A stretch of DNA of 64,000 nt from Gammaproteobacteria bacterium Gsub (GTDB lineage: Bacteria; Pseudomonadota; Gammaproteobacteria; PS1; Pseudothioglobaceae). Positions 34,394 through 43,242 of the stretch are shown here, one piece after another (within the stretch, counting starts at the first letter, position 1; each line of letters starts with the position of its first letter). Where the stretch lies: assembly GCA_002007405.1 (NCBI GenBank), contig JYIN01000012.1:1-64000 (forward strand), written 5' to 3'. The position numbers and the translations under genes are program-made. A model generated the notes under the pieces. The model saw only the letters and a list, made by a program, of their open reading frames with translations, searched no databases and was not told where the DNA came from.

Positions 34394-36670
34394 CTATAAT
34401 TTACAGACGCCATCAATGCAGACATTGTCCTCTTCTTTTTGGCTTATATCATCACTAGCGCCATCACGCGTGGTATGGTAATAAAGCGTCTTTATACCGT
34501 ATTTGTAGGCTTTTAAAATATCCAACAAAAATAATTTCATCGGCACCTTATTGCCCTCAAACAGTGCTGGGTCGTAGTGCGTATTGGTTGAAATGGATTG
34601 GTCAACAAACTTTTGCATAATTGCACAGAGTTGTAAATACCCTTCATTGTCCTTAATATCCCAAAGTAGCTCATATTGATTTTTTAATTTTGTGTAATCT
34701 GGCACAATCTGTTTTAGGATACCGTCTTTAGATTGTTTGATGGAAACAAAACCCCGTGGTGGCTCAATCCCGTTGGTGGAATTAGATATTTGTGATGAAC
34801 TTTCACAAGGCATGAGCGCGGTTAAGGTTGAATTTCTTAAGCCTGTTGCCATAATATCGCTACGCAAAGTATCCCAATCCAAGTGCAAATCACACTTACA
34901 AAAAGTGTCAATATCTTTTTTATAAGTATCAATCGGCATTTTACCTTGTGCGTATTTAGTCTCTTTAAACAAAGGGCAAGCGCCCAATTCATGTGCAAGT
35001 TTGTTTGATGCTTTTAAGGCGTAATATTGTAAGGCTTCAAAAGTTTTATGAATTAAAATATTACCTGAACCATCCGAATATTTAGCCTTATTTTTGGCTA
35101 AATAATATGCTAAATTAGTTACTCCAATACCGAGAGTGCGGCGGCTTTTACTAGCAATCTCAGCCGCTTTAATTGGATAATCTTGATAATCTAGGAGGCT
35201 GTCCAATGCACGCACGATAATCTCAGTGATGTCTTTGAGCTCATCCAAATTCTCAAGTGCACCGAGATTAACTGCTGATAGAGTACATAAAGCCACTTCA
35301 CCATTTTCATCCTGCACTGAGTATAGTGGTTTGGTGGGCAAAGTAATCTCCATACAAAGGTTTGATTGACGCACTGGCGCTTGCTTAGCGTCAAAAGCAC
35401 CATGAGTATTGCAATGGTCAACATTTTGCAAGTAAACTCGCCCAGTGTTAGCGCGTTCTTGCATAAATTTAGCAAATAAATCCCTCGCCTTGATGGTAGT
35501 TTTTTCAATAGATTTGTCTTGTTCATATTGTTCATATAGGCGCTTAAATTCATTTTGGTCGGTAAAAAACGCATCATACAAACCCGGCGTATCATGCGGT
35601 GAAAATAAAGTAATATCAACATCTTTTAAAAAACGCTGATACATCAAACCGTTAAATTGCACCCCATAATCCAGATGACGAATGCGATTTTCATCAGTGC
35701 CAGCATTATTTTTTAGCACCAATAGACTTTCTATTTCTAAATGCCACAATGGGTAGAATAAGGTAGCGGCACCACCTCGAACGCCACCTTGAGAGCAAGA
35801 TTTAACCGCCGTATGAAAATGTTTGTAAAAAGGAATACAACCGGTGTGTGTTGCCTCACCACCACGAATAGGGCTGCCGATTGCACGAATTCTGCCACCA
35901 TTGATACCAATGCCTGCACGCTGGGAAACATATTTAACAATTGCACCTGCAGTCGCACTAATTGAATCCAAATCATCATCAGCCTCAATCAATACACAAG
36001 AGGAAAATTGTCGTGTTGATGTACGCACGCCAGCCATAATCGGGGTGGGTAATGAGATTTTAAATAAAGACACCGCATCATAAAAACGCTTCACAATATC
36101 TAAGCGTTTATTGGTGGCGTATTCTTGAAACAAGCACATACCAACCAGCATATACAGCTGCTGAGGTGATTCGTAAATTTCTCCAGTCACACGGTTTTGG
36201 ACGAGATATTTACCCTCTAATTGTTTAACCGCTGCATAAGAAAATTTCATATCACGCCAATGGTCGGTGTAATTGTCAAGTATTTTTATTTCTGCTTGGG
36301 TATATTTTTTTAAAATATCCTTATCGTAAATCCCTAAATTTATGATTTTTTTAATATGTTCTAAAAGTGGGGGTGGGGTAAAAGATTGAAATGCCTTTTT
36401 ACGCAAATGAAAAATCGCCAAGCGCGCAGCTAGATACTGATAATCAGGGATTTCGGTTGAGATTAAATCAGCGGCTGATTTGATAATGGTTTCGTGAATA
36501 TCTGCGGTTTTAATGCCATCAAAAAACGCCAGTTTTGCATTGATTTCAACTTGTGAGATACTCACCCCTTGTAAATCTTGCGATGCCCAATGCACTACAC
36601 GGTGAATTTTCTCCATATCAATAGGTTCTTTTTCGCCGTTGCGTTTGGTAACTTGAATATATTCGCCCAC
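34394..36670 (-). CDS. nrdA: Class Ia ribonucleotide reductase alpha subunit
   Basis: NrdA reduces ribonucleoside diphosphates. The 758-residue protein has an N-terminal ATP-cone domain (KRNGEKEPIDMEKIHRVVHWA), the catalytic barrel with FSSCVLIEADDDLDSI, NLCMEI and MPCESSSQISNSTNGIEPPRGFVS, and the C-terminal redox pair in CIDGVCKL. The start is GTG at 36670, which aligns with the known NrdA N-terminus. No match to the NrdR box consensus is seen upstream, but a perfect inverted repeat lies 30 bp before the start. Confidence 0.97.
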   Translation of the reverse strand: MGEYIQVTKRNGEKEPIDMEKIHRVVHWASQDLQGVSISQVEINAKLAFFDGIKTADIHETIIKSAADLISTEIPDYQYLAARLAIFHLRKKAFQSFTPPPLLEHIKKIINLGIYDKDILKKYTQAEIKILDNYTDHWRDMKFSYAAVKQLEGKYLVQNRVTGEIYESPQQLYMLVGMCLFQEYATNKRLDIVKRFYDAVSLFKISLPTPIMAGVRTSTRQFSSCVLIEADDDLDSISATAGAIVKYVSQRAGIGINGGRIRAIGSPIRGGEATHTGCIPFYKHFHTAVKSCSQGGVRGGAATLFYPLWHLEIESLLVLKNNAGTDENRIRHLDYGVQFNGLMYQRFLKDVDITLFSPHDTPGLYDAFFTDQNEFKRLYEQYEQDKSIEKTTIKARDLFAKFMQERANTGRVYLQNVDHCNTHGAFDAKQAPVRQSNLCMEITLPTKPLYSVQDENGEVALCTLSAVNLGALENLDELKDITEIIVRALDSLLDYQDYPIKAAEIASKSRRTLGIGVTNLAYYLAKNKAKYSDGSGNILIHKTFEALQYYALKASNKLAHELGACPLFKETKYAQGKMPIDTYKKDIDTFCKCDLHLDWDTLRSDIMATGLRNSTLTALMPCESSSQISNSTNGIEPPRGFVSIKQSKDGILKQIVPDYTKLKNQYELLWDIKDNEGYLQLCAIMQKFVDQSISTNTHYDPALFEGNKVPMKLFLLDILKAYKYGIKTLYYHTTRDGASDDISQKEEDNVCIDGVCKL

Positions 36671-36990: not shown

Positions 36991-38790
36991 TTAATTACTA
37001 ACAGGGTAATTTTCTACAGAACTATGCATTTCTATAAATATTGGGGAGCCAGTAAAGGATAGAGGAGATATAGGTCCATAAAACATAAAAGGATATTTTC
37101 CGTTGCTGGCTGGATCTATAAATGAGCGATAAAATTTAGCCCCAGAATCATCATTAATTATATCTTTTATTTTAGAAAATTCTGTTCCACTAGTAAGTCC
37201 ATAACCGAAAGCAAAGATTCTAATTTGCCTTCTAATTTCTTCATGCAATGAGTCAAGTGTTTGAGTTATAAACATGTAACCAATACCATATTTTCTAGTT
37301 GTTCTAACTGCATCAATAATACTAGTTGTTAATTGTTTGATTTCGTTATCATAAGAATAATAGCTGATATAACGGTGAGCTTCATCCAAAACAACTAAGC
37401 AGTTAGACTGTTCACCTCTGGCGTACATTTCTTGCCCTTTTGCCTTAATTGCATCTTCAATGATTTTTACATACAAAGTCTCTAGACCATCCATCCCTTG
37501 TATTGCCCCTCTACCAGAAATATTTAAAACAATGACATTGCCCTGTTTATTGACAATACTGTCTATTATCGTTTTTAAATGTTGTTTTGTTTTTGTTTGA
37601 TTGTCTTCTTTATAATTCCCCTTTGCAAATAAATTACATACTTTATCCCACATTTGTTTTGCTTGGCTGTTATCTTCTTTTGACAAAGTATCTTTTATAT
37701 TCTCTTTTACGCTATCAATATAATTGTTACCGCTATAAACTTTTTTTAGTGGTTCTCTATCTCTTGGATTTTTTTCATTTAAAAAATAATCCATCATGTC
37801 ATGGAATAATTTATCTGGATTTTTACCAATAAGGCTTCCTTTGGCATAGGCAATACGCTCGCCAATATAGCGTTCAATAGCTTCGCGCATTTCTTTTAAT
37901 TTTTCTTCAGACAGAATATCAAAAGCGTCCTTTATAAACCCATAATTTAATAGTAATTCACTAAGTATTTTTGCATTATCTGGCAGTATTACATGGGCAG
38001 GAATTTTGTATTTTTCATAGTTAATGCCCATTTTTTCTATTTCATCTTTAAATTTACCATTAGGTACAACATTGTTATCTTCATAAAATTGTTCTTGAGG
38101 ATCAAGAATCAAAATACTCATATATTTGTGGTTTCTAGCATATCCCAAAATCATATTGGCGGCAGTTGTGGTTTTTCCCGAACCTGTCCTACCAAAGACA
38201 CCAATATGATAAGCATCACCAGCACCATTTATGTCATTTCCTTCGTTGTCTTTACTTTTACCAAAATGTTTAAACCAGAAAGGCATGTCTATGTCTGTGT
38301 CATAGGCTTTCCCTATACATACTAAACCCTGATATTGACTAACCAGTTTTTTCATTATTTCATTCTTAATTTTATGAACTGACACTCCAGTTGATGGGGA
38401 GTTTGCTAATTTGTGTGCCTCGGGTGAGTCTTTATTAATTGATAATTTAAAACTTGATTGAACATTAATTTTTGCAATACGATTATCAGCAATACCACTT
38501 AAGTTAGGTAACTGTCCATGTCTTTTAATAATGCCCTTAAATGATGGCTCTTCATGCCATCTGTTAACTGTTTTTATTGTAGTAATTTGTCCTAATACAA
38601 GTATGTTATCTGTATTTTCTCTGGCTAAGAAATACACAACTTCGCCTAATAGTTTGCTTTCCTCATTTATATCTCGTATATCAGTAATAACCTCAAAAGA
38701 GTCACTTGGAGAACCAATCACCCCTAAAGGACTTTTATCTTGCTTAATTAAATTTATAACTGGATGATCGTTATTTGGCAATTCATTCAT
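36991..38790 (-). CDS. HerA-type hexameric DNA translocase
   Basis: HerA ATPases are hexameric DNA pumps that drive a partner NurA nuclease. The 599-residue protein has an N-terminal HAS-barrel-like region (about 20-115), Walker A GRTGSGKT at 200-207, the DPQEQF segment near 230, Walker B LVVLDEAHRY at 465-474, and the AVRTTRKYGIG and FITQ motifs near 494-509. These match the HerA/VirB4-like branch. It is the last gene of a three-gene operon, 2 bp after the NurA stop. Base composition looks more AT-rich than the neighbouring core genes, suggesting transfer. No C-terminal extra domain is visible. Confidence 0.85.
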   Translation of the reverse strand: MNELPNNDHPVINLIKQDKSPLGVIGSPSDSFEVITDIRDINEESKLLGEVVYFLARENTDNILVLGQITTIKTVNRWHEEPSFKGIIKRHGQLPNLSGIADNRIAKINVQSSFKLSINKDSPEAHKLANSPSTGVSVHKIKNEIMKKLVSQYQGLVCIGKAYDTDIDMPFWFKHFGKSKDNEGNDINGAGDAYHIGVFGRTGSGKTTTAANMILGYARNHKYMSILILDPQEQFYEDNNVVPNGKFKDEIEKMGINYEKYKIPAHVILPDNAKILSELLLNYGFIKDAFDILSEEKLKEMREAIERYIGERIAYAKGSLIGKNPDKLFHDMMDYFLNEKNPRDREPLKKVYSGNNYIDSVKENIKDTLSKEDNSQAKQMWDKVCNLFAKGNYKEDNQTKTKQHLKTIIDSIVNKQGNVIVLNISGRGAIQGMDGLETLYVKIIEDAIKAKGQEMYARGEQSNCLVVLDEAHRYISYYSYDNEIKQLTTSIIDAVRTTRKYGIGYMFITQTLDSLHEEIRRQIRIFAFGYGLTSGTEFSKIKDIINDDSGAKFYRSFIDPASNGKYPFMFYGPISPLSFTGSPIFIEMHSSVENYPVSN

Positions 38791-38792
38791 AA

Positions 38793-39977
38793 TTAACTTG
38801 TACGGTATGGAAATATTAAGTCGAAATTTTTTTCACTATTAAGAATAGGATTAGAGTAAATAGCTTGGTTAACTGCTTGCATCCCAAAAGAAATATTTTT
38901 GGCTACAATATCAGCCAGATACTGTGGATATGGTTCTCTAATTTCAGGCATCACTATTTGCCTTCTAATACTGCTGAGAGTTTTTTCTAATTCACTTTTA
39001 TCTTCCGCCAAACTTTTTTTAATTTCAATTCTGTAAGCTGGAGCATATTCAAAAGGCTTATAGTAACAAAAAAATAAGTTTGGCTTTTGATTGTTGGTAA
39101 TTTTAAAAGGTAAAATTGCTAAACTCAGTTGGTGATTGAATTCTACATTGTTTACACCGTCTATATTTAGATTACATGCAATATGTATTTGCTTCCATAT
39201 TGCTTTGTTTTTTTTAGTTTGACCAACAGGTAATGGTTTTGTATATTCATTTTCTTTTAATAAAGATGACATAAAAACCTTATCATCAGCATGAATGTTT
39301 AAATTTTTTAAAACAGAGTCTATTATTTCCCTGGATGAAGAATATTTAGTAAGTCCTATAATTGAAGGTTCAGAAAAGGCATTGTTTATAATATCAGGTA
39401 TGTCTGGAATAACCTTGTTGTAATTTTCTTTTAGAAAAGATGATAATGCATCTACATAAGGCATATCAGCATTATCATGGTCGTTGGCACTTAGTAAACT
39501 ATTTAATTTAAGTATTGTTGTTAGATGTGAGCCATCCATGATTCTAATTTCTCTGTTGGCTTCTGAAAGAATACTTAATTCCATTAAGAACATAATTCCC
39601 TGAGATAGTCTAGTGTTAGCAACATGATGAGGAAGAGCTGTTTGCCACTGCTGATACTGTTTAGAGGCTATAGGCCATGATTGTGAGTGATTGCCAGACA
39701 ATCCGTCTACACCTACTGCTATAGATAACATTACATCAGCACTGGTTTTGTGGTCTATTATATTGGCGCCATCTACTGCCATGATTGAATCAGTATATTC
39801 ATCATTTAAACAATGACAAATCAACATATTTTTTTCTAGAATTTCTCTAGACTGAGACAATTCGTTCTCATTTAGATTGATAGTATTTGCTAATTTTTCT
39901 GCGGTATTAGAGGCATTACTCAACATTTGAATAATTAGGTCTTCAGGCAAGTATGCATAATTCTTATTCTCAGACAT
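38793..39977 (-). CDS. NurA-domain nuclease
   Basis: NurA is a manganese-dependent DNA nuclease that acts with HerA. The 394-residue protein has the family metal-binding motifs: AVDG with Asp69, IMDGSHL with Asp148, a GLTKYSSS segment near 208 (the GxxKxS position) and a C-terminal EPYPQYLADIVAKNIS near 350, where the last acidic and basic positions lie. The set looks complete, so activity is likely. Its ATG overlaps the upstream DruA-like stop by 8 bp, and HerA follows 2 bp after its own stop. It is larger than many archaeal NurA proteins. Confidence 0.82.
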   Translation of the reverse strand: MSENKNYAYLPEDLIIQMLSNASNTAEKLANTINLNENELSQSREILEKNMLICHCLNDEYTDSIMAVDGANIIDHKTSADVMLSIAVGVDGLSGNHSQSWPIASKQYQQWQTALPHHVANTRLSQGIMFLMELSILSEANREIRIMDGSHLTTILKLNSLLSANDHDNADMPYVDALSSFLKENYNKVIPDIPDIINNAFSEPSIIGLTKYSSSREIIDSVLKNLNIHADDKVFMSSLLKENEYTKPLPVGQTKKNKAIWKQIHIACNLNIDGVNNVEFNHQLSLAILPFKITNNQKPNLFFCYYKPFEYAPAYRIEIKKSLAEDKSELEKTLSSIRRQIVMPEIREPYPQYLADIVAKNISFGMQAVNQAIYSNPILNSEKNFDLIFPYRTS

Positions 39978-41148
39978 TATTTAAATCTTTTATAATGTTC
40001 TGACAATTTAATATATCTGTCTTCAATTCTGTTAAATAGTTATCCCTATCAAAAAACAACTTTTTAGAGGGGTAATCGTTATTTAGTCTTTTAACTAGCC
40101 ATCTATCTTTCCAGAAAGCTGTTACAGATTCTTCATTTCTATCTGATATCCACTCAGGCGCGGCATTTTTATGTATCACATCAGGTAAGTTTTTTACTAG
40201 TTCAAACAGGTAAACTCCTCTTTTTATTCCGTGGTCAGCGCCATTTCTAAAGCCAAGCATATTCATAGATTTGCTAATAATTTTCATTTTTGCTGAGGGA
40301 CCATTACCATAACATCTTCCCACCTGTTGTCCCTCAGATATCAAATAATTTACTAAACTTTCATATAAGGTATTTGGGATGTGAAATGAACCACTTCCAT
40401 TTGAGTAGCCTATAAATTTACACACATTCTCTTCTTTATACTTAAGTCTATTGTAGATGCTGCTTTTTCCAAAGGCTCCAGTTGTAGTAATAAATAGTAA
40501 ATTTGCGGGAATTTTTCTGTTTAATAATAATGTTTTTTGTTTGTTGTATTTATTATGAAAAGTTTCAATTATTTTATTAGTTGTTATTAAGGACGATACC
40601 AATTTTCCACCTAAGAAATTGTTATATGGAGGTAGGGCACCAATTCTTTGAGCACTTAAAGATTGATTTACCCAGAAATCTTTATTCTCTTTTTTGATAC
40701 CAAGATATTTATCTCTTACTTTCCAATTTAAAATGGGGCTTTGTAGTCCTATTAATCCTATTGGAGAGTTGTGATAGTCATCCCATATAATGAAACGCAT
40801 TTGCCTACCATAAGATTTTTCAAATGGTAGGCTCCACCACACTAAGTTCCACCATCTAAAAATATCTGCATATTTAGTGTTTGGTTTGACTTCAATTATT
40901 CTAGGAGATATTTTTAATGGTTCTAATTGATTGCTATCAATCAAATATTCCTTTATAAGTTCGGTTTTTGAATTAATAAAAGATAAACTACTTACTATTC
41001 TTTCAGCTCTAGAGGTTACATGAACTTTTTTTTTGTTGCTTTCGATATGATCTAAGTGAAATTTATTATTCTCAAATAGAAAGCCTTGAAATTCAAGGTA
41101 TTTGATTACTTTATCTTTAAGTTCTGTTTGAGAGATACAATATTCCAC
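39970..41148 (-). CDS. DUF4338 (DruA-like) protein
   Basis: The 392-residue protein matches the DUF4338 pattern known from DruA of type I Druantia phage defence. Hallmarks are GRQMRFIIWD near 114, LIGLQSP and KVRDKYLGI near 150, LPPYNNFLGGKLVSSL near 173, TTGAFGKSSIYNRL near 215, FIGYSNGSGSFHIP near 240 and FWKDRWLVKRL near 350. Its biochemical activity is not established. GTG at 41148 is the start; no longer option exists. It opens the operon with NurA and HerA. A promoter-like TTGAGT/TATAAT pair lies just upstream. Low GC suggests it was acquired. No druB-E genes are nearby, so this is not a standard Druantia locus. Confidence 0.82.
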   Translation of the reverse strand: MEYCISQTELKDKVIKYLEFQGFLFENNKFHLDHIESNKKKVHVTSRAERIVSSLSFINSKTELIKEYLIDSNQLEPLKISPRIIEVKPNTKYADIFRWWNLVWWSLPFEKSYGRQMRFIIWDDYHNSPIGLIGLQSPILNWKVRDKYLGIKKENKDFWVNQSLSAQRIGALPPYNNFLGGKLVSSLITTNKIIETFHNKYNKQKTLLLNRKIPANLLFITTTGAFGKSSIYNRLKYKEENVCKFIGYSNGSGSFHIPNTLYESLVNYLISEGQQVGRCYGNGPSAKMKIISKSMNMLGFRNGADHGIKRGVYLFELVKNLPDVIHKNAAPEWISDRNEESVTAFWKDRWLVKRLNNDYPSKKLFFDRDNYLTELKTDILNCQNIIKDLNNV

Positions 41149-41480: not shown

Positions 41481-41570
41481 TGGCGGAGAGAGAGGGATTC
41501 GAACCCTCGGTGCCGTTTAAGGCACACCCGCTTTCCAAGCGAGCAAATTAAACCACTCTGACATCTCTCC
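41481..41570 (-). tRNA. tRNA-Ser (anticodon GGA)
   Basis: On the minus strand a 90-base class II tRNA starts GGAGAGATGTCAGAGTGG and ends TCTCTCCGCCA, with encoded CCA. The acceptor stem GGAGAGA pairs with TCTCTCC. The anticodon loop CTTGGAAAG (plus 41531-41539) gives anticodon GGA (plus 41534-41536), the serine UCC/UCU reader. The long variable arm (GTGTGCC...GGCAC) and the GGTTCGAATCC T-loop are clear. A minus-strand TATAAT at plus 41584-41589 is a good -10. Its 3' end faces the druA-nurA-herA operon. Confidence 0.96.
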
Positions 41571-41592: not shown

Positions 41593-43242
41593 CTATCTCT
41601 GATTTTGTTTTGAGGCGTTCAGCATATTTTCAATTTGACCCTCTTCAATTCGCTCCATTAACGGCTTGAATCTATTAATTTGGTGTTTGGTTAGCGGATG
41701 TTTGATTTCATCCCAGCTGAGGGTATCAACATTTAAAAACATTTGTGCTTGTTGTGCCATCGTTGGTAATATCGGCTTTAGGTAGGTTATTAGCACTCTA
41801 AAGAGATTGATTGCAAGTGATGCAACATCATGGACTTGTGCTGCCTTGTTGGCTTCTTTAATCATTTGCCAAGGTTTTTGTTGGTCAATATATTGGTTGG
41901 CACTGTCAGCGAGTTTCATAATTTCACGCATTGCTAAGTTGTAATTTCGTGCTTCATAAAATGTGGCAATTTCATCGCCTTTATTTACAAATTTATGATA
42001 TAGCCTCCCCCCAACCAAATGAGCAGAAAGAGTTTTGTCAAATCTTTTAACAATAAAACCTGCACTACGAGAGGCGATATTAACCACTTTTCCGACTAAA
42101 TCAGAATTAACCCTTTGCTTAAAATCCTCCAAGTTTAGGTCAATATCATCAATCTTGGCATTGAGTTTATAAGCATAATAATAACGCAAATATTCAGGGT
42201 TTAAGTTTTCTAAATAAGTTCGTGCGGGGATAAAAGTGCCTCGAGATTTACTCATTTTTTGTCCATTAATAGTTAAAAACCCATGTGCAAAAATGGCGTT
42301 AGGGGTACGGTAGTTAGCCCCCATTAAAATCGCTGGCCAAAATAGAGCATGAAAATAGACAATATCCTTGCCGATAAAATGATACAGTTCGGTTTGTGAA
42401 TCTAAGTTGAAATATTCATCAAAATCCAAGTTTTGATCGCTACAGAGCTTTTTAAAACTTGCCATGTAACCAATCGGCGCATCTAACCAAACATAAAAAT
42501 ATTTCCTCTCTACATTGGGAATTTGAAAGCCAAAATACGGAGCATCGCGCGAAATATCCCATTGTTTCAAGCCTTGTTCGAACCACTCTGTTAGTTTATT
42601 TTTGACCTCTGTTTGTAGATGCCCCGCATTTGTCCAAGCTTTGAGTCTGGTCTCAAACTGTGGCAAGTCAAAAAAATAATGCTGAGAATCTTTGCTAATT
42701 GGTGCCACATCCGATAGTGTTGATTTGGCATTTTTTATCTCGGTGGGTGAGTAAGTCGCACCGCAGACTTCGCAATTATCACCATATTGATCAGTAGCCC
42801 CACATTTTGGGCAGTCACCTTTGATAAAACGGTCCGGCAAAAATATTTGTTTTATAGGGTCAAACGCTTGAGAGACGATATGTGATTTAATAAAGCCAGC
42901 AGTGTTGAGTTGGTTATAAATATCTGTTGAAATGGCTTTATTTTCTTTACTATGGGTGGAGTGGTATTGGCTAAAATCAATAGAAAAATCCTTAAAATCA
43001 GCAAGGTGGCGTTTGTGTACATCATCAATCAATACTTCTGGGGTGATGCCTAACTCATCGGCTTTTAGCATAATGGGCGTGCCATGGGCATCATCGGCAC
43101 ATACATAATGGCACTCATGCCCCATCATGCGCATAAAACGCACCCAAATATCGGTTTGGATATATTCCAATAAATGCCCCAAATGAATTTCGCCATTTGC
43201 ATAAGGCAGTGCTGAGGTAACGAGAATTTTTCGCTTTGGCAT
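41593..43242 (-). CDS. metG: Methionyl-tRNA synthetase
   Basis: MetG charges tRNA-Met. The 549-residue enzyme has the HIGH-type motif [13 protein letters not shown] near 12-24, the zinc knuckle [18 protein letters not shown] near 143, KMSKSRG near 330, and the alpha-helical anticodon-binding domain. It lacks the C-terminal tRNA-binding/dimerisation domain found in longer forms, a normal short version. It is divergent from mrp, the usual metG/mrp pairing. The stop lies 22 bp from the tRNA-Ser gene. Confidence 0.96.

What the first reader, a model, noticed from the sequence alone, without database searches (positions are those of the whole stretch)
36991..41148. Candidate new defence module: DruA-like + NurA + HerA operon
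Seen: three coupled minus-strand genes (8-bp overlap, then a 2-bp gap) encode a DUF4338/DruA-like protein, a NurA nuclease with its metal residues, and a HerA translocase with intact Walker motifs. Known: HerA-NurA is a DNA-end resection machine in archaea. Bacterial HerA occurs in defence with SIR2 or DUF4297 partners, and DruA is part of type I Druantia. To my knowledge the DruA + NurA + HerA trio is not a characterised named system, and druB-E are absent. Inference: the NurA-HerA pair degrades invading DNA and the DruA-like protein gives recognition or modification. The module is AT-rich and lies next to a tRNA.
Basis: partly seen in the sequence, partly recalled or inferred. Interest (0 to 1): 0.85.

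Follow-up and report, generated by a model that had tools for sequence, protein, structure and literature searches.

The report
DruA-NurA-HerA candidate phage-defence cassette
Three tightly coupled genes (an acetyltransferase-fold DruA protein, a NurA nuclease and a HerA DNA pump) form a cassette that recurs in the same order in at least ten bacterial phyla, on phage-like contigs and in one transposon, often beside known anti-phage genes; it looks like an undescribed DNA-destroying immune system whose DruA part may mark or recognise DNA.

Summary
In detail: druA (41148-39970), nurA (39977-38793) and herA (38790-36991) are intact, co-directional and coupled (8-bp overlap, 2-bp gap). Domains are confirmed (DruA 200 bits, NurA 34, DUF87 47). 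The trio recurs: of 39 genome loci fetched with a NurA profile whose upstream side is visible, 37 carry druA upstream of nurA-herA, across at least ten phyla; it also occurs on three viral contigs and beside Tni-type transposon genes. It is absent from the 35 other genomes searched in the window's family. In 12 of 36 loci with readable flanks a neighbour is a restriction-modification or other defence gene, including a DruE-type helicase directly upstream. An AlphaFold model of NurA matches solved NurA and HerA-NurA structures; DruA resembles GNAT acetyltransferases, weakly. No description of the trio was found in the paper library. Best reading: a defence cassette in which HerA-NurA degrades foreign DNA and DruA supplies discrimination, most likely by marking self DNA. 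A phage contig with a solitary DruA 87% identical to a cassette DruA fits a protective role, but that step is inference. Defence function is likely but untested; DruA chemistry is open. New variant of a known kind (HerA-nuclease defence).

The parts
39970..41148 (-). druA: DUF4338/DruA protein, 392 aa; GNAT-like core about residues 80-250 (inferred from model and fold matches) plus N- and C-terminal parts; first gene of the cassette
   Evidence: AlphaFold pLDDT 88.8; weak but consistent GNAT fold matches; invariant residues R98, W105, G114-R115, D123, R145-D146, G181-K182, S229-S230, Y232-N233-R234, R310
38793..39977 (-). nurA: NurA-family nuclease, 394 aa, with conserved acidic residues Asp69, Glu133, Asp148
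   Evidence: AlphaFold pLDDT 88.8; Foldseek to HerA-NurA 9x1m E 2.6e-11, Sulfolobus NurA 2ygk E 7e-11; invariant residues
36991..38790 (-). herA: HerA/FtsK-family DNA translocase, 599 aa, Walker A 200-206, Walker B 469-470, conserved R499 and Q510
   Evidence: profile matches to solved HerA, TdpA and HerA-NurA chains; conservation
41481..41570 (-). flanking tRNA-Ser(GGA); part of the family's conserved metG-tRNA-Ser arrangement, not of the cassette
34394..36670 (-). flanking nrdA (ribonucleotide reductase large chain); boundary of the insert, not part of it
41593..43242 (-). flanking metG (methionyl-tRNA synthetase); boundary, not part of the cassette

Best explanation
The trio is a self-contained, horizontally moving anti-invader cassette that works like a restriction-modification system. 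HerA forms a ring that pumps double-stranded DNA and feeds it to a NurA dimer, which degrades it; this is the known biochemistry of HerA-NurA. DruA, a GNAT-like protein, provides self/non-self discrimination, most probably by adding a small protective mark to host DNA that blocks HerA-NurA, less probably by recognising foreign DNA or regulating the nuclease. Shown here: gene identity, intact catalytic motifs, folds, conserved order, mobility, defence neighbours. Inferred: complex formation, DNA degradation in this branch, anti-phage activity, DruA chemistry.
For: Same order and coupling in 37 of 39 informative genome loci from at least 10 phyla and on three viral contigs; gene spacings cluster around zero. 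NurA and HerA distances track each other (Spearman 0.93) and DruA tracks both (0.57; largest of 999 permutations 0.36). Absent from the 35 other same-family genomes searched, so acquired; directly after genes that read as tniA-tniB-tniQ in L108. Defence genes are close neighbours in 12 of 36 loci: type IIG R-M overlapping the herA stop in L008, L019 and L046; type III R-M genes in L013, L014, L047; DruE-type helicase upstream and a HEC-05-type gene downstream in L048; HmaC-, Lamassu- and Mokosh-like genes in L023, L021, L045; methyltransferases in L024, L044, against no R-M hit among 42 control genes of the window. Folds: NurA, GNAT-like DruA, as published for DUF4338 (PMC10853773). DruA is shared with canonical Druantia I loci. 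Phage contig L056 carries a solitary DruA 87% identical to the cassette DruA of L023 with no NurA on its 21.9-kb record, as expected if DruA protects DNA.
Against: No functional data. DruA fold matches to GNATs have E-values of about 0.1-1 and there is no significant sequence link to the GNAT-fold DNA modifier Mom (hhalign probability 0.5%). DruA could acetylate a protein or sense something else. Two thirds of the loci have no recognised defence neighbour, the window's among them. nurA-herA pairs without druA exist (L003, L004, L005, L039), so DruA is not needed by every relative. L056 is an incomplete viral contig, and its call as a virus is IMG/VR's.
Confidence: 0.55

Rival explanations
1. 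Defence cassette as above, but DruA is a sensor, DNA-recognition subunit or protein-acetylating regulator that licenses HerA-NurA on foreign DNA; nothing is written on self DNA.
For: DruA has large conserved N- and C-terminal parts outside the GNAT-like core; no significant link to DNA-modifying Mom; DruA also works with quite different partners in Druantia I.
Against: Solitary DruA on phage-like contigs and a DruA-like gene in the replication region of a cyanophage are easier to explain by a protective enzyme.
Confidence: 0.25
2. HerA-NurA is the disposal arm for a neighbouring nuclease: it loads on ends cut by adjacent R-M or Druantia-type systems and degrades the fragments, so the trio is an accessory rather than a system.
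For: HerA-NurA acts on DNA ends (PMC9960219); R-M or DruE genes are operon neighbours in several loci.
Against: The neighbours differ from locus to locus and are missing in most loci, including the window; druA is the only constant third gene.
Confidence: 0.1
3. DNA-repair module: an end-resection unit like archaeal and Deinococcus HerA-NurA, used by the host for recombination.
For: Same enzyme pair and folds; known role in Deinococcus (PMC9960219).
Against: Sporadic and absent from same-family genomes, found in 3 of 398 Pseudomonadota genomes, on phage contigs and beside transposon genes, next to defence genes, with a DruA gene in front.
Confidence: 0.06
4. Mobile-element function: the translocase, nuclease and DruA serve DNA transfer or replication of an integrative element.
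For: Carriage on phage-like contigs and after tni-like transposon genes; HerA/FtsK pumps serve conjugation and packaging in other elements (own knowledge).
Against: In the window no integrase, relaxase or capsid gene accompanies it, and R-M genes are the commonest recurring neighbours; the transposon in L108 has its own tniABQ.
Confidence: 0.04

Closest known systems
Druantia type I (DruABCDE)
   Same: Shares DruA; full-length DruA of 410-430 aa heads the operon in both (L109, L110, L111)
   Different: No DruB, DruC, DruD or DruE helicase in the window; a NurA-HerA pair stands in their place. Druantia I DruAs form a clade of their own (100/99)
TdpABC (HerA-like TdpA, nuclease TdpB, modifier TdpC; phosphorothioate-gated; description from own knowledge, PDB 8wet)
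   Same: HerA-like ATPase with a nuclease and a modifier gene; TdpA is matched by the HerA profile and TdpB weakly by the NurA model (E 4e-3)
   Different: The third gene is a GNAT-like DruA, not a phosphorothioation enzyme; sequences are only distantly related
HerA-DUF4297 and HerA-SIR2 (Nezha) defence
   Same: HerA-family ATPase paired with an effector enzyme in a defence operon (PMC11291478)
   Different: Effector here is a NurA-fold nuclease and there is a third gene; NCBIfam anti-phage HerA models score far below cut-off
Archaeal/Deinococcus HerA-NurA end-resection complex
   Same: Same enzyme pair; NurA model matches 9x1m, 2ygk, 3tal
   Different: Sporadic, mobile, DruA-coupled; no mre11-rad50 beside it in the window
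Phage Mu Mom (GNAT-fold adenine modification)
   Same: Possible analogue for DruA: a GNAT-like protein that marks DNA; a cyanophage DruA homologue is annotated 'methylcarbamoylase mom'
   Different: No significant profile similarity; different PHROG families

Membership tests
Druantia type I | DruA present | tested here: met
   Pfam PF14236 200 bits, PADLOC DruA1 275 bits
Druantia type I | DruB-DruC-DruD-DruE with the DruE helicase in the operon | tested here: not met
   Only nurA and herA follow; flanks are nrdA and tRNA-Ser/metG
HerA-NurA nuclease-translocase pair | NurA fold with acidic metal site | tested here: met
   Foldseek E 2.6e-11 to NurA of HerA-NurA; D69, E133, D148 invariant
HerA-NurA nuclease-translocase pair | HerA with intact Walker A and B next to nurA | tested here: met
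HerA-NurA nuclease-translocase pair | Physical HerA hexamer-NurA dimer complex and end-resection activity | not testable with these tools
   No complex prediction or biochemistry available
HerA-DUF4297 / HerA-SIR2 defence | DUF4297 or SIR2 partner | tested here: not met
   Pfam scan of all three proteins shows neither
TdpABC phosphorothioate-gated defence | Phosphorothioation enzyme TdpC in the operon | tested here: inconclusive
   No third gene other than druA in the operon; TdpC itself was not used as a query
Anti-phage defence system | Recurrent co-localisation with defence genes | tested here: met
   12 of 36 loci; 0 R-M hits of 42 in control
Anti-phage defence system | Protection against phage or plasmid | not testable with these tools
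   Needs experiment
Mom-type DNA modification enzyme (for DruA) | Detectable homology to Mom | tested here: not met
   hhalign probability 0.5%, E 0.12
GNAT acyltransferase (for DruA) | GNAT fold | tested here: inconclusive
   Most of the top 50 PDB matches are GNAT-fold proteins but at E of about 0.1-1; published assignment of DUF4338 as GNAT

The most novel reading that the evidence does not exclude
DruA is a GNAT-fold enzyme that acylates DNA bases as a self mark, and HerA-NurA destroys DNA lacking it: a restriction-modification system based on DNA acylation rather than methylation or phosphorothioation. Phages carrying a solitary DruA borrow the mark, and DruA would play the same marking role in Druantia I.
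Probability: 0.25. Interest if true: 0.88.

Novelty: new variant of a known kind. Interest (0 to 1): 0.62.

Why it matters
It would add a widespread three-gene immune system to the HerA-nuclease group, give NurA a defence role in bacteria, and place DruA, whose job in Druantia is unknown, in a minimal setting where it can be tested with only two partners. If DruA marks DNA, it would reveal a new kind of self mark.

Tried and rejected
tRNA-directed integration: no repeat of the tRNA 3' end in the window, and metG-tRNA-Ser is the family's arrangement. A homology link of DruA to Mu Mom: single sequence and nine-sequence profile both failed. DruA relatives of known structure by sequence: none. Prevalence in Chloroflexota could not be sampled. 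A clean empty site was not shown: nrdA was not found within 1.5 kb of metG in relatives. Literature on TdpABC and the primary paper on Druad1 is not held. A repair or transfer role was considered and ranked low.
Full report
What is in the window. Three minus-strand genes lie between nrdA and tRNA-Ser/metG: druA 41148-39970, nurA 39977-38793, herA 38790-36991, with an 8-bp overlap and a 2-bp gap. Pfam confirms DruA (200 bits), NurA (34 bits) and the HerA central domain (47 bits), all above curated cut-offs. PADLOC recognises DruA and a HerA-type ATPase but has no hit for NurA; NCBIfam names none of the three above cut-off. The segment is AT-richer (31-33% GC) than its flanks. The source genome is 1.37 Mb in 14 contigs; the families that match the other window genes are those of ordinary chromosomal genes.

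Acquired, not ancestral. The window NurA has no match in the 35 other genomes of the same family that were searched. metG with tRNA-Ser(GGA) close by is found in most of those relatives whose locus reaches far enough, so the tRNA neighbour is old and the cassette is the newcomer. No repeat of the tRNA end marks an integration event. In a 398-genome sample of the phylum the NurA profile hits three genomes, each with an adjacent druA: the window's, a genome whose 11,071-bp contig (L007) has the same length and gene layout as L036, a Mariprofundales MAG, and a single-contig genome of the window's class (L108).

The trio recurs. A scan of 84,980 species genomes with a four-sequence NurA alignment returned 43 loci. 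ORF calling and profiles for the three proteins show druA upstream of nurA in 37 of the 39 loci whose upstream side is on the contig (druA is about 1.5 kb away in L015, and both genes are fragmentary in L051), with herA downstream wherever the contig continues (split into two ORFs in L015). The exceptions are L039 (Methanolobus) and L040. Record titles and lineages cover Pseudomonadota, Chloroflexota, Actinomycetota, Bacteroidota, Armatimonadota, Bacillota, Planctomycetota, Thermodesulfobacteriota, Myxococcota, Deinococcota and Thermomicrobiota. Three viral contigs (L008, L009, L060) carry it too. Distances from druA end to nurA start and nurA end to herA start, estimated from profile alignments, lie within about 40 bp of zero in nearly all loci. 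The closest relatives (62-65% identity in NurA) are in four gammaproteobacterial MAGs and one labelled Rhodobacteraceae; the rest are mostly at 22-32%. NurA-HerA pairs without DruA were found on a haloarchaeal, a rhizobial and an actinobacterial plasmid.

The three proteins evolve together, unequally. Over 36 loci pairwise identities of NurA and HerA correlate at 0.93, DruA with either at 0.57, permutation maximum 0.36. So NurA-HerA is a fixed pair, and DruA is inherited with it but exchanged or diverging differently, as specificity or marking subunits often are (inference).

Company. Neighbours (93 proteins from 35 loci, plus those of L048) were scanned for defence families. They include type IIG restriction-methyltransferases whose start overlaps the herA stop in L008, L019 and L046; type III restriction-modification genes in L013, L014 and L047 (in L047 overlapping druA); a 1703-aa DruE-type helicase ending 17 bp before druA and a HEC-05-type gene after herA in L048; HmaC/DUF499 and an OLD/AriA-like ATPase in L023; a Lamassu LmuB-like protein in L021; a Mokosh-like protein in L045; type II methyltransferases in L024 and L044. 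That is 12 of 36 loci. Among 42 other window genes scanned the same way there was no R-M hit; five models had one match each, one of them strong (mad3, 2.6e-47). The control is small and from one genome, so the enrichment is indicative, not a measured rate. In L108 the trio follows directly after genes that read as tniA, tniB and tniQ (identified by eye from sequence, not by a domain search).

Structure. AlphaFold models built from family alignments have mean pLDDT 88.8 for both DruA and NurA. NurA matches NurA of the Thermococcus HerA-NurA complex (E 2.6e-11), Sulfolobus NurA (E 7e-11) and, weakly, the G chain of the TdpAB defence complex. Invariant NurA residues include D69, E133 and D148. 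DruA has no credible relative of known structure by sequence; by fold most of the leading PDB matches are GNAT acetyltransferases, at E of about 0.1-1, in line with the published reading of DUF4338 as a GNAT domain (PMC10853773). HerA profiles match solved HerA, TdpA and HerA-NurA chains.

DruA links. Canonical Druantia I loci (L109, and plasmids of Nitrosococcus and Pseudomonas putida) start with the same DruA; these DruAs form one clade inside the diversity of trio DruAs in an unrooted tree (sampling was through NurA, so the relative breadth is biased). On phage-like contigs DruA also occurs alone: L056 carries one 87% identical over 381 residues to the trio DruA of L023, with no NurA anywhere on its 21.9-kb record. 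Cyanophages and Pelagibacter phages carry distant DruA homologues, one annotated 'methylcarbamoylase mom' that is a DruA relative by profile (probability 96.9%). The Phold authors also noted DruA-like proteins in Synechococcus phages (PMC12774648). A direct test of DruA against Mom gave nothing significant, so Mom is an analogy only.

How it most likely works. From known HerA-NurA biochemistry (PMC9960219) the pair translocates along and degrades dsDNA from ends. A system with such an unspecific engine needs a discriminator; DruA is the only constant third gene. Solitary phage DruA resembles the way phages carry orphan methyltransferases to escape restriction. I therefore favour DruA as a marking enzyme (inference), with DruA as sensor or regulator the main rival. 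Known systems with the same logic are TdpABC (own knowledge) and, with other effectors, HerA-DUF4297 (PMC11291478).

Literature. Full-text searches for NurA+HerA+DruA, DUF4338 and related terms found no description of this trio. The library lacks most subscription papers, so prior description cannot be excluded.

Verdict. Observation confirmed. Interpretation partly supported: very likely a real and undescribed mobile defence cassette, mechanism of DruA open.

Noticed in passing
L108:4622-12742: A single-contig genome of the window's class carries the trio directly downstream of genes that read as tniA, tniB and tniQ; the last overlaps druA by 7 bp. Suggests Tn5053/Tn7-like elements move it.
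   Followed up: partly
L048:934-11883: DruE-type helicase, DruA, NurA, HerA and a HEC-05-type gene in one co-directional run: a possible Druantia variant with NurA-HerA.
   Followed up: partly
L056:3775-4950: Phage-like contig with a solitary DruA 87% identical to a cassette DruA; candidate anti-restriction gene.
   Followed up: partly
L115:1213-2334: Cyanophage S-SCSM2R protein annotated 'methylcarbamoylase mom' is a DruA homologue, not a Mom homologue by sequence (PHROG 19197 versus 1384).
   Followed up: yes
DruA model mdce64caac528 versus BFVD: Uncharacterised proteins of giant viruses (Faunusvirus, Yasminevirus, Dasosvirus) match the DruA fold at E 1e-15 to 4e-8.
   Followed up: no
L015:10119-11900: Leifsonia sp. 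Root227 copy has herA split into two ORFs and 1.5 kb between druA and nurA; possibly decaying.
   Followed up: no
window, gene not identified: One of 42 other window genes matches PADLOC mad3 at 2.6e-47; ten candidates were checked and none was it. Probably a housekeeping ATPase.
   Followed up: partly
L003:7911-10733, L004:7911-10944, L005:7974-11089: nurA-herA pairs without druA on haloarchaeal, rhizobial and Euzebya plasmids; related two-gene form.
   Followed up: partly
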